DNA from: an uncultured Ruminococcus sp.
GTDB taxonomy: Bacteria; Bacillota; Clostridia; Oscillospirales; Acutalibacteraceae
Assembly: GCA_902766885.1 (NCBI GenBank)
Contig: CACXFS010000014.1
Span: 1 to 54,784 of the forward strand
DNA length: 54,784 nt
Direction of reading: 5' to 3'
The notes beneath the pieces were generated by a model. It was not told the DNA's origin and did no database searches. It saw only the letters and a program-made list of their open reading frames with translations. The translations under genes and the position numbers were made by a program. Shown piece by piece: positions 51,168-54,784 of the stretch. Numbering within the stretch: the first letter of the stretch is position 1; every line of letters begins with the position of its first letter.

Positions 51168-51908
51168 TTACAAAACCTTCGATAAAAAGTCTTTTAATCG
51201 CTGATTTCTGGGATTTTCGAAGAACTCCTTCGGCTCACCCTGCTCAACAATTACGCCGTCATCAACAAATACTACATTTGTGCCGACTTCACGTGCAAAG
51301 CCCATTTCGTGGGTAACAACAACCATTGTCATTCCCTCTTTTGCAAGCTGTTTCATAACCTCAAGCACCTCGCCTACCATTTCGGGGTCGAGCGCACTTG
51401 TCGGTTCGTCAAAAAGCATAACGTCAGGGTCCATACACAAAGCACGAACAATTGCAATTCTTTGCTTCTGACCGCCCGAAAGCTGTGAAGGATATGCAGT
51501 GGCTCTGTCGGCAAGACCTACTCTTTCGAGCAGTTCCATTGCTCTTTTTTCAGCATCTGCTTTGCTCTTTTTGAGCAGTTTTATCGGTCCTAAAGTGAGG
51601 TTTTTCATAACAGTCATATGAGGAAAAAGATTAAACTGCTGAAATACCATACCCATTTTCTGTCTGTGAATATTTATGTTTACAGACGGGTCTGTTATAT
51701 CTGTTCCCTCAAAATAAATTTTTCCTCCGGTCGGCTCTTCAAGTCTGTTAAGGCAACGAAGAAAAGTAGATTTACCCGAGCCTGACGCACCGATTACAAC
51801 CATTACGTCGCCCTTATGAATTTCAGCGTTGATACCTTTGAGAACATCTACATTGTCAAATGACTTACAGAGGTTGTCAACCTTTATCAGAACATTATCA
51901 GTGGTCAC
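51168..51908 (-). CDS. polar amino-acid ABC transporter ATP-binding protein (GlnQ type)
   Basis: A 246-residue ATPase of the PAAT family. Walker [25 protein letters not shown] loop [14 protein letters not shown], signature [15 protein letters not shown], Walker [20 protein letters not shown] and the H-loop [12 protein letters not shown] are complete; this family-specific HEMGFAREV confirms the polar amino acid type. The start is GTG at 51908 with GGAGG 10 bases upstream, overlapping the permease gene by 11 bases. The amino acid carried cannot be told. Confidence 0.94.
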
Positions 51909-52629
51909 TGCTGCGCAACCTCCTCTCGAGCTTTTTGAGCAGGAATGTCAGAATAAGAACAATTACAAGATAAATCAGTGCAACTGCAATAAGCGGGAAA
52001 AATGCCTCATAAGTACGAGAACGAATGAGGTTACCGACATATGTCAAATCCTGAATTGCAACATAGCCTGCTACGGAAGTTTCCTTGACAAGAACGATAA
52101 ATTCGTTGCCGAGAGCAGGAAGTATGTTTTTGAACGCCTGCGGAATAATAACGTGTACCATAGTACTTTTATAGTCAAAACCGAGTGAACGGCTAGCCTC
52201 AAACTGACCTTTGTCAATTGACATAATGCCCGAACGTACAATCTCGGCAACGTATGCGCCTGAATTGATACCAAACGAGATTATAGCTGCAATTATGCCG
52301 TCACGAGAAGACGCAAAAACTATAAAATACATAATCATAAGCTGAATAACTACAGGAGTTCCTCTGATTACGGTTATGTAGATATTACAGATAAAATTAA
52401 CTACCTTTAAAATATAATCGCCGAAACTTCTGCACTTTCTGCCCGACAAATTCATATCATAGGTTGAACGGACTATAGCAATTAAAAATCCGATTACAAC
52501 GCCGATTACTGCCGCAAAAAGCGTGATTTCAACGGTAACAAGAAGTCCGTTGAGAAGCTGAAGCCAGCGGTCGTCAGTAATAAAGGTCTTTACAAAGCTT
52601 TGATAAAGACCGTTAAAAAAATCCTGCAT
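51898..52629 (-). CDS. polar amino-acid ABC transporter permease
   Basis: A 243-residue His/Glu/Gln/Arg/opine-type membrane permease. About five hydrophobic helices, opening [31 protein letters not shown], the [19 protein letters not shown] motif and the EAA-loop region [45 protein letters not shown]. Encoded between the binding protein (with a hairpin at 52652-52681 between) and the ATPase. A single permease gene implies a homodimer. Confidence 0.93.
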
Positions 52630-52692: not shown

Positions 52693-53526
52693 TTATTCCT
52701 TAACAATAATAACCTGCTTAGCCGTTGTGTAAGAATCAGTAAAGTTGATAGCTTCCTTTCTTTCGTCGGTAACTGTCATACCTGCCATACCGAAATCAGC
52801 CTTACCTGACTGAACTGCAGTGATGATGGAATCAAAGTCCATATCATCAATTACGAGCTTATAGCCAAGCTTATCGCAGATAGCCTGAGCAATCATTGCG
52901 TCAATGCCAACAACCTTGTCGCCCTCATAGTACTCATAGGGCTCAAAGAATGCGTTTGTAGCCATATGAAGCTCACCGTTCTTGTACTCTGTACCGTCGG
53001 GAGTTTCGTAAGGTGATTTGCCCTTTGTATCGTCACCGATGTAGTTCTTTATGATACTGTCAACTGTACCGTCTTCTTTGAGTTCAGCAAGAGCTGTGTT
53101 AAATTCTTTTGTAAGCTTGTCGTTATCCTTTGCAATACAGATAGCATAATCTTCTTCGGCAAAAGGCTCATCAAGAATCTTAAGGCCTTCGTTTGCTGCT
53201 ACAAAAGCCTTTGCAGGCTCATTGTCGATGATTACGCAGTCAACCTTGCCCTGTGTAAGAGCCAGAACTGCGTCTGCACCCTTGTTGTAACGCTCAATTG
53301 TCGAGCCTTCTTCTTCATAATCAGAAGCGTAGATGTCACCGGTCGTGCCGAGCTGAACACCGATTTTTGCACCCTTAAGGTCATCAATTGAAGCTACTGT
53401 CTTAGTGTCAGCAGAAGATGCCTGTGAGCTTGAGTTCGAACTTGATGAACCGCCACAGGCTGAAAGAGCCAGTGCAGTTGTGCAGAGCATTGCTGCTGTG
53501 AGAACGATTGATAAAATCTTTTTCAT
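52693..53526 (-). CDS. amino-acid ABC transporter solute-binding lipoprotein, apparently circularly permuted
   Basis: A 277-residue lipoprotein: signal peptide with lipobox LSAC and Cys-24, Ser-rich linker to 42, then family 3 solute-binding sequence in swapped order. Residues 46-172 match the second half of the usual fold (SIDDLKGAKIGVQLGTTGDI, GKVDCVIIDNEPAKAFV, LKILDEPFAEEDYAIC, ALAELKEDGTVDSI). After a linker rich in Gly/Pro/Thr, residues about 184-277 match the usual first half (MATNAFFEPYEYYEGDKVVGIDAMIAQAI, DMDFDSIITAVQSGKADFGMAGMTVTDERKEAINFTDSYTT). Both halves are intact, so it probably works. RBS AGAGG. First gene of the ABC operon; the ligand is probably a polar amino acid. Confidence 0.88.
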   Translation of the reverse strand: MKKILSIVLTAAMLCTTALALSACGGSSSSNSSSQASSADTKTVASIDDLKGAKIGVQLGTTGDIYASDYEEEGSTIERYNKGADAVLALTQGKVDCVIIDNEPAKAFVAANEGLKILDEPFAEEDYAICIAKDNDKLTKEFNTALAELKEDGTVDSIIKNYIGDDTKGKSPYETPDGTEYKNGELHMATNAFFEPYEYYEGDKVVGIDAMIAQAICDKLGYKLVIDDMDFDSIITAVQSGKADFGMAGMTVTDERKEAINFTDSYTTAKQVIIVKE

Positions 53527-54700: not shown

Positions 54701-54784
54701 GGAGAGATGTCCGAGCTGGCCGAAGGAGCATGATTGGAAATCATGTGTACGGTAATCACCGTACCAGGGGTTCGAATCCCCTTC
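54701..54784 (+). tRNA. tRNA-Ser (anticodon GGA), cut at the window end
   Basis: Acceptor stem 5' strand GGAGAGA (54701-54707), a D-arm with the usual Ser pattern GCTGGCCGAAGG, anticodon stem CATGA/TCATG (54729-54733 and 54741-54745) with loop TTGGAAA and anticodon GGA at 54736-54738. A long variable arm (about 54746-54765) follows, as in class II serine tRNAs, and then the T-arm GGGGTTCGAATCCCC. The last bases, including the 3' acceptor strand, lie outside the window. GGA decodes UCC and UCU serine codons. Confidence 0.95.

What the first reader, a model, noticed from the sequence alone, without database searches (positions are those of the whole stretch)
52693..53526. Circularly permuted family 3 solute-binding lipoprotein
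The binding protein has the two halves of the usual polar-amino-acid binding fold in reversed order: the segment normally in the C-terminal half (SIDDLKGAKIGVQLGTTGDI to the ALAELKEDGT helix) comes first, and the normal N-terminal half (ATNAFFEPYEYYEGDKVVGID to MTVTDERKEAINF) comes last, after a Gly/Pro/Thr-rich linker near 173-184. Both halves are complete, and the protein is in a normal operon with permease and ATPase, so it is probably functional. Lineage-wide relatives may exist in clostridia; the permutation itself is uncommon for this superfamily and moves the membrane tether from the usual start to a different place in the fold.
Basis: partly seen in the sequence, partly recalled or inferred. 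Interest (0 to 1): 0.75.

Follow-up and report, generated by a model that had tools for sequence, protein, structure and literature searches.

The report
Rearranged amino-acid-binding protein, recurrently permuted
This bacterium's amino-acid uptake protein has its two halves in swapped order, still looks functional, and the same kind of swap has happened repeatedly (and perhaps been undone once) in related bacteria, which makes it a natural experiment in how proteins can be rewired.

Summary
The 277-aa lipoprotein at 52693-53526 (-) matches SBP_bac_3 in two stretches in reverse order; rotated back it gives one collinear full-length hit. It is not an assembly accident: the own genome and 25 others of 250 in the family carry full-length collinear relatives, as do 73 of the 80 best loci of a named collection, isolates included. 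Both halves look constrained, permease and ATPase follow, and AlphaFold is confident.

Permutation recurs in family 3 binding proteins of these bacteria, at four cut places, all seen in lobe 2 or at hinge 1, in at least two subfamilies and several families of the phylum. Eight canonical-order relatives fall inside the permuted clade, which suggests reversal. That is favoured, not proven: the binding-protein AU tests give p 0.137 and 0.084, and the partner genes tell a conflicting history.

Permuted binding proteins of other families are published (Tp0684; glycine betaine binders), so this is a new variant of a known kind. Ligand, lobe packing and hinge mechanics are inferred.

The parts
52693..53526 (-). 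Circularly permuted family 3 solute-binding lipoprotein, 277 aa plus stop
53455..53526 (-). Residues 1-24: signal peptide ending in lipobox-like LSAC (lipid-anchored cysteine 24)
   Evidence: sequence reading; C24 in at least 90% of the 58 aligned sequences
53398..53454 (-). Residues 25-43: Ser-rich spacer between anchor and fold; pLDDT under 50 up to residue 37
53029..53397 (-). Residues 44-166: canonical C-terminal half, here first (lobe 2, hinge strand 2, then the C-terminal part of lobe 1)
53131..53160 (-). Residues 123-132: long strand taken as hinge strand 2, the only covalent crossover between lobes
   Evidence: secondary structure of the model; hinge assignment by homology
52978..53028 (-). 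Residues 167-183: linker joining the canonical C terminus to the canonical N terminus, recognisable through the clade
   Evidence: linkers listed for the type A proteins; pLDDT block means 86-95 for residues 161-180
52696..52977 (-). Residues 184-277: canonical N-terminal half, here last (N-terminal part of lobe 1 and hinge strand 1)
52699..52728 (-). Residues 267-276: long strand taken as hinge strand 1; the protein ends one residue later, so this hinge is cut on its lobe 2 side
   Evidence: hinge assignment by homology
51898..52629 (-). Permease of the same operon (BPD_transp_1), 243 aa, 63 bp downstream
51168..51908 (-). ATPase of the same operon (ABC_tran), 246 aa, overlapping the permease end by 11 bp

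Best explanation
The gene encodes the lipid-anchored substrate-binding protein of a polar-amino-acid ABC importer (permease and ATPase follow). Its family 3 fold is circularly permuted. Relative to canonical relatives the chain is cut directly after hinge strand 1, and the old C and N termini are joined by a linker of about 17 residues. Each lobe thereby becomes one continuous stretch (lobe 2 = residues 44 to about 122; lobe 1 = about 133 to 266). Only one covalent crossover remains (hinge 2, 123-132), and hinge strand 1 (267-276) becomes the free C terminus. The lipid anchor moves from lobe 1 to lobe 2. Cleft residues still come from both lobes, so it most likely binds an amino acid and closes like a normal Venus-flytrap binder. 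SHOWN: reversed order, completeness, conservation across genera, operon, low dN/dS. INFERRED: fold packing (AlphaFold), lobe and hinge limits (homology), amino-acid ligand, retained closing motion, donation to the adjacent permease. ORIGIN: the window's clade shares a recognisable linker and so probably one permutation. Related clades were permuted separately, at four cut places in lobe 2 or at hinge 1, most likely by duplication of the gene and loss of the outer halves (inferred). One subclade appears to have returned to canonical order.
For: Reversed profile hits, repaired by rotation. Full-length collinear matches in the own genome and 25 others of 250, all 26 confirmed by separate half profiles, and in 73 of the 80 best genome-contig loci, including Ruminococcus sp. 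FMBCY1 (complete genome), R. bromii YE282, Eisenbergiella tayi DSM 26961 and Faecalibacterium gallinarum JCM 17207. Linker recognisable through the clade. dN/dS 0.044, 0.10, 0.077 and 0.12 against four relatives; by part C-half 0.04-0.12, linker 0.06-0.33, N-half 0-0.13 (dS partly saturated, the linker has only 17 codons). In 58 aligned sequences D101, F194, F231, G249 and R256 are invariant and T251 at least 90%; that these match the glutamine binder's ligand residues is recalled. Of 98 type A rows (after removing 7 repeated loci), 93 have the permease next or fused, 83 also an ATPase within the fetched stretch. AlphaFold mean pLDDT 88.7, pTM 0.80, both long hinge-like strands predicted. Recurrence.
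Against: No solved structure or binding assay. Foldseek, which aligns in sequence order, gives query-normalised TM of only 0.28-0.47 in the 50 rows listed; the second aligner was not available. My canonical-order control model failed (pLDDT 47.8), so there is no structural control. AlphaFold gave no inter-domain error and I had no coordinates, so lobe packing is not measured. The ligand is unknown: no NCBIfam model among the 25 listed reaches its cut-off, and the only Rfam match in the window is a tRNA.
Confidence: 0.88

Rival explanations
1. Assembly or annotation artefact: a chimeric contig, or two partial genes read as one.
For: The window is one contig of an 83-contig draft genome, and many relatives come from metagenome assemblies.
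Against: The same order occurs in 73 of the 80 best loci, including a complete isolate genome and isolate drafts, with a recognisable shared linker. The ORF is intact with one signal peptide, at low dN/dS.
Confidence: 0.01
2. A decaying fragment of a tandem binding domain (N-C-N-C) that lost its outer halves and no longer works.
For: Tandem N-C-N-C proteins exist in the phylum (L183, L185), and loss of the outer halves would give C-N.
Against: Low dN/dS in both halves, invariant cleft residues in 58 sequences, permease next or fused in 93 of 98 type A rows, and spread across many genera. As an origin, rather than a decay state, this route remains likely.
Confidence: 0.03
3. The halves fold and bind only as a domain-swapped dimer, each cleft made from two chains, because hinge 1 is cut.
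For: Only one covalent crossover is left, and AlphaFold of a single chain cannot exclude it.
Against: The single-chain model is confident over nearly all of residues 41-277. 15 type A proteins are fused to the permease, which would need special dimer geometry.
Confidence: 0.06
4. Canonical order was not restored in the Ruminococcus-like subclade; the eight canonical proteins are a surviving original lineage that later exchanged sequence with permuted genes.
For: AU tests on the binding protein do not reject permuted rows as one clade (p 0.137 for 25 rows, 0.084 for 48). The permease and ATPase tree scatters the eight and rejects their unity (p 9.7e-5), which points to gene exchange between operons. 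In the half trees support is weak, and the N-half tree mixes two permuted rows, L082 and L143, among the eight.
Against: Both halves separately place the eight inside the permuted clade. The joint tree gives 99/92 with L082 and 100/99 for the enclosing clade (bootstrap not fully settled). Partner genes reject an all-permuted clade without them (p 5.8e-9; the groups had been seen in a quick tree).
Confidence: 0.35

Closest known systems
Tp0684 (TpMglB-2) of Treponema pallidum, proposed Type Ic / Cluster Bc binding proteins (PMC4990184; I saw 12 matching passages)
   Same: A natural circular permutation of a bilobed, tethered ABC binding protein with relatives in Gram-positive gut bacteria. Function shown there: it binds D-glucose and changes shape. 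The authors raise membrane tethering as a possible cause of the topology.
   Different: Type I (cluster B) sugar binder. Its permutation lies in the N lobe and adds a fourth hinge crossing. Here a family 3 fold is cut at hinge 1, leaving one covalent crossing, and the cuts recur at several places.
Glycine betaine binders, molybdate binders and CysB, a circular-permutation family (CPSARST, PMC2395249; 8 matching passages seen)
   Same: Circular permutation within a similar two-lobed fold; OpuAC structures appear among the Foldseek matches of the model.
   Different: A relation between distant proteins under 24% identity. Here it occurs between close relatives, and PF04069 OpuAC does not reach its cut-off in the window protein (15.5 against 21.2 bits).
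Canonical family 3 binders: AncQR (4zv1), E. coli GlnH (1ggg), TIGR01096 family
   Same: Homologous along both halves; conserved cleft residues (residue roles recalled).
   Different: Order of halves reversed; anchor on the other lobe.
GlnP-type tandem binding domains (6h30)
   Same: A C-half followed by an N-half occurs there between two domains, and 6h30 is the top Foldseek hit. Fusion to the permease also occurs among permuted relatives.
   Different: 6h30 is two whole canonical domains in a row; the window protein is one domain rearranged.

Membership tests
Family 3 solute-binding proteins (Pfam PF00497) | Profile match over the gathering score | tested here: met
   114.9 bits against 26.4
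Family 3 solute-binding proteins (Pfam PF00497) | Whole domain present | tested here: met
   The rotated sequence covers profile 1-131 of 132 in one stretch, 124.3 bits
Family 3 solute-binding proteins (Pfam PF00497) | Cleft residues for the amino-acid backbone (recalled from glutamine binder: Arg, Asp, Gly/Thr) | tested here: met
   R256, D101, G249 invariant and T251 at least 90% in 58 sequences; the roles and the residue matching are recalled or read by eye
Family 3 solute-binding proteins (Pfam PF00497) | Binds a polar amino acid | not testable with these tools
   no assay
Polar-amino-acid ABC importer (PAAT) operon | Lipoprotein binder with adjacent permease and ATPase | tested here: met
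Canonical-order (unpermuted) family 3 binders | N-half before C-half in the chain | tested here: not met
   reversed; so it is a permuted variant, not a canonical member
Circularly permuted proteins | Old termini joined, new termini elsewhere, all segments kept | tested here: met
Circularly permuted proteins | Same three-dimensional fold | tested here: inconclusive
   Confident model, but sequence-order alignment cannot show the match and the control model failed
Type Ic / Cluster Bc (Tp0684-like) permuted binders | Type I cluster B sugar-binder sequence | tested here: not met
   The strong Pfam and NCBIfam matches are family 3 and related models, none a cluster B sugar binder
OpuAC-type permuted binders (PF04069) | PF04069 over cut-off | tested here: not met
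   15.5 against 21.2 bits
Tandem binding domains (GlnP-like) | Two complete domains N-C-N-C | tested here: not met
   One N-half and one C-half in 277 aa

The most novel reading that the evidence does not exclude
Family 3 binding proteins of clostridia form a lineage in which circular permutation is an ordinary, repeated and reversible step. The chain has been cut independently at four places, always in lobe 2 or at hinge 1, so that the lipid anchor always ends up on lobe 2. At least once the canonical order was regained from a permuted ancestor. The anchor's position on the fold, rather than the fold itself, may be what selection acts on.
Probability: 0.45. Interest if true: 0.82.

Novelty: new variant of a known kind. 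Interest (0 to 1): 0.64.

Why it matters
Natural circular permutations are mostly known as single old events between distant proteins (general knowledge). Here close homologues in both orders, at several cut places, free or fused to the permease, coexist in one bacterial group. That allows direct tests of how much a two-lobed binder needs two covalent hinges, why the anchor lobe matters, and how permutation arises and perhaps reverts. It also matters for annotation: profile tools give these proteins split hits, and a structure search in sequence order gives them low TM scores.

Tried and rejected
Artefact, decay and tandem-fragment readings were tested and set aside (see rivals). Chimera of halves from unrelated sources: rejected, since both half trees put the window protein with largely the same permuted relatives, L073 nearest in both.

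Structural proof of lobe packing: the second structural aligner was not available. A control model of a canonical relative failed (pLDDT 47.8) and is not used. Substrate from a riboswitch: no such Rfam match in the window. A solved permuted family 3 structure: with the junction query, of the 60 of 69 PDB sequences listed, only tandem 6h30 has a best stretch that spans the junction; the table does not give the order of the other stretches. CIRPIN paper (PMC12667903): six terms searched in its text, no occurrences. Paper searches for permuted amino-acid binders: none for family 3 among the listed titles and abstract beginnings. Most of these listings were capped and the library holds open-licence papers only, so this is not proof of absence. 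One search was a side search on a phosphate binder.

Limits of counts: the match lists are cut off, so permuted counts are lower bounds; one search keeps the best 80 matches to a permuted query and so favours permuted genes. In one search the crude label rule called L177 and L178 'A' although one search shows another cut. Rows used in trees: 148 of 156 (same-gene copies and identical rows out). The bootstrap had not settled.

Full report
CHECK OF THE OBSERVATION. The gene at 52693-53526 on the minus strand is an intact 277-aa ORF. Pfam SBP_bac_3 matches it at 114.9 bits in two stretches, the profile's first part (1-91) lying at residues 186-276, near the C terminus. The genome scan shows profile 1-95 downstream of profile 97-131. 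NCBIfam and PDB matches are reversed in the same way. Rotating the sequence into canonical order gives one collinear stretch over profile 1-131 of 132 at 124.3 bits, and the best NCBIfam model changes from two stretches to one. Two canonical controls, the other family 3 gene of this genome and relative L150, give one collinear stretch each. Chance or the similarity of the two lobes does not explain this.

ANATOMY. Residues 1-24 look like a lipoprotein signal with LSAC at 21-24; 25-43 is a Ser-rich spacer. Residues 44-166 are the canonical C-half, 167-183 a linker, 184-277 the canonical N-half. AlphaFold with 58 sequences gives mean pLDDT 88.7 and pTM 0.80; ten-residue block means from residue 41 on are 86-98. 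Two long strands, 123-132 and 267-276, fit the two hinge strands. By homology the chain is therefore cut right after hinge strand 1, each lobe becomes continuous, hinge 2 is the only covalent crossover, and the anchor sits on lobe 2 instead of lobe 1. These last statements are inferred: no coordinates or inter-domain errors were available, Foldseek in sequence order gave query TM 0.28-0.47 in the 50 rows listed, and a canonical control model failed.

FUNCTION. Permease (51898-52629) and ATPase (51168-51908) follow on the same strand. Among 98 type A rows (7 repeated loci removed) the permease is next or fused in 93, and an ATPase lies within the fetched stretch in 83 of these; for type B 24 of 25 and 24, for canonical rows 24 of 25 and 23. 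dN/dS against four relatives is 0.044, 0.10, 0.077 and 0.12 (dS partly saturated). In 58 aligned sequences R256, D101, G249, F194 and F231 are invariant and T251 nearly so; that these match the glutamine binder's ligand residues is recalled knowledge. The likely role is capture of a polar amino acid and delivery to the permease. No listed NCBIfam model reaches its cut-off and no riboswitch was found, so the ligand is open.

DISTRIBUTION. In 250 genomes of the same family, 233 match the protein; 26, the own genome included, have a full-length collinear match, and all 26 are confirmed as C-half then N-half by separate half profiles. In the named collection 593 stretches matched a pattern (limit reached), 143 encoded relatives and the best 80 were kept; 73 are permuted and 7 canonical. 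The best 80 matches to a permuted query favour permuted genes, so this is not a frequency. The 73 include a complete isolate genome (Ruminococcus sp. FMBCY1) and isolates of R. bromii, Eisenbergiella tayi and Faecalibacterium gallinarum. Ten of the 73, and 5 of the 26, are fused to a permease, which follows hinge strand 1 after a short stretch. The linker is recognisable through this clade, so it probably stems from one event.

OTHER PERMUTATIONS. A second arrangement, type B, places the end of the C-half first, then the N-half, then the rest of the C-half; its cut lies in lobe 2 just before hinge 2. In one search, 38 listed genomes have rows of this shape; I fetched 25 and all 25 are type B. 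A small group, L020-L022, is cut about a dozen residues later than the window protein and keeps the start of the C-half at its end; two of its members in the careful tree nest among canonical proteins beside L061 (99/94), so it is a separate event. A different binding-protein subfamily, whose canonical member is the other family 3 gene of this genome, has 7 full-length permuted members in 250 genomes, all 7 checked for half order (L191-L197). Fourteen further fetched loci of it look like type B (L203-L214, L216, L217): 4 with both C-half pieces detected, 9 with only the front piece, 1 (L210) with none. Across 398 genomes of the phylum, 317 match the junction query. I fetched 18 regions: 10 are C-half then N-half (L173-L176, L181, L182, L187-L190; the last four and L181 fused to a permease), 1 is type B (L179), 2 have a further cut after about the first 25 positions of the C-half (L177, L178), 1 is C-N-C-N fused to a permease (L184), 1 is canonical (L180), 2 are tandem N-C-N-C (L183, L185) and 1 is cut by a contig end (L186). 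These regions were picked for their shape, not at random. On an all-in tree of 91 rows the arrangement changes 12 times by parsimony; starred branches force at least 6 changes for type A and 3 for the type B-like rows (quick tree, crude labels). I saw no cut inside lobe 1 in the listed rows; the lists are truncated and I did not test this systematically.

REVERSAL. Eight canonical-order proteins (L055, L146-L152), at least one (L055) from the window's own genus, are 79-89% identical to the window protein in the N-half and 66-76% in the C-half. Both half trees put them inside the permuted clade, with weak support; the N-half tree also mixes permuted L082 and L143 among them. The joint tree joins them to permuted L082 (99/92) within a 33-row clade (100/99) (bootstrap unsettled). 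Against this, AU tests that hold the permuted rows together are not significant (p 0.137 for 25 rows, 0.084 for 48). The adjacent permease and ATPase reject a permuted-only clade (p 5.8e-9) but also reject the eight as one clade (p 9.7e-5) (after a quick tree had been seen). So binding-protein genes and partner genes have partly different histories. I read this as one return to canonical order followed by exchange between operons, or more than one return; probability about 0.6.

ORIGIN. Tandem duplication with loss of the outer halves is the usual route to a permutation (general knowledge) and fits what is seen: tandem N-C-N-C and C-N-C-N proteins occur, and in L194 and L197/L215 a canonical-order gene of the same subfamily lies directly upstream of the permuted gene. 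This is inference; those upstream genes are distant from the permuted ones on the tree.

COMPARISON. Natural permutation of binding proteins is known: Tp0684 of Treponema pallidum (PMC4990184, passages seen), where glucose binding was shown and tethering raised as a possible cause, and the glycine betaine and molybdate binder family (PMC2395249, passages seen). Nine paper searches listed none for family 3; most listings were capped and the library is open-licence only. The window protein meets the sequence tests of a family 3 binder except the order, and works, as far as can be inferred, like one.

VERDICT. New variant of a known kind; interest 0.64.

Noticed in passing
L036 6020-6919; L191-L197: A different family 3 subfamily is also permuted at hinge 1 in 7 of 250 genomes, while the window's own genome keeps a canonical member (G000 C16).
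   Followed up: partly
L184 3029-5293: A 754-aa protein with order C-N-C-N followed by a permease: apparently two permuted binding domains in tandem.
   Followed up: partly
L215 3199-3996 and 4084-4818; L194 749-1396 and 1447-2283: A canonical-order binding-protein gene directly upstream of a permuted one on the same strand.
   Followed up: partly
L177 3293-4099; L178 3532-4350: A further cut place, after about the first 25 positions of the C-half, in another family of the phylum.
   Followed up: partly
L148-L150 against L055, L146, L151, L152: The binding-protein tree unites the eight canonical-order relatives, the permease and ATPase tree splits them: likely gene exchange between operons.
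   Followed up: partly
L033 1492-2301: Another canonical-order protein placed loosely inside the permuted clade: a second reversal or a long-branch effect.
   Followed up: no
54701-54784: tRNA gene at the window edge, cut off at its 3' end (Rfam).
   Followed up: no
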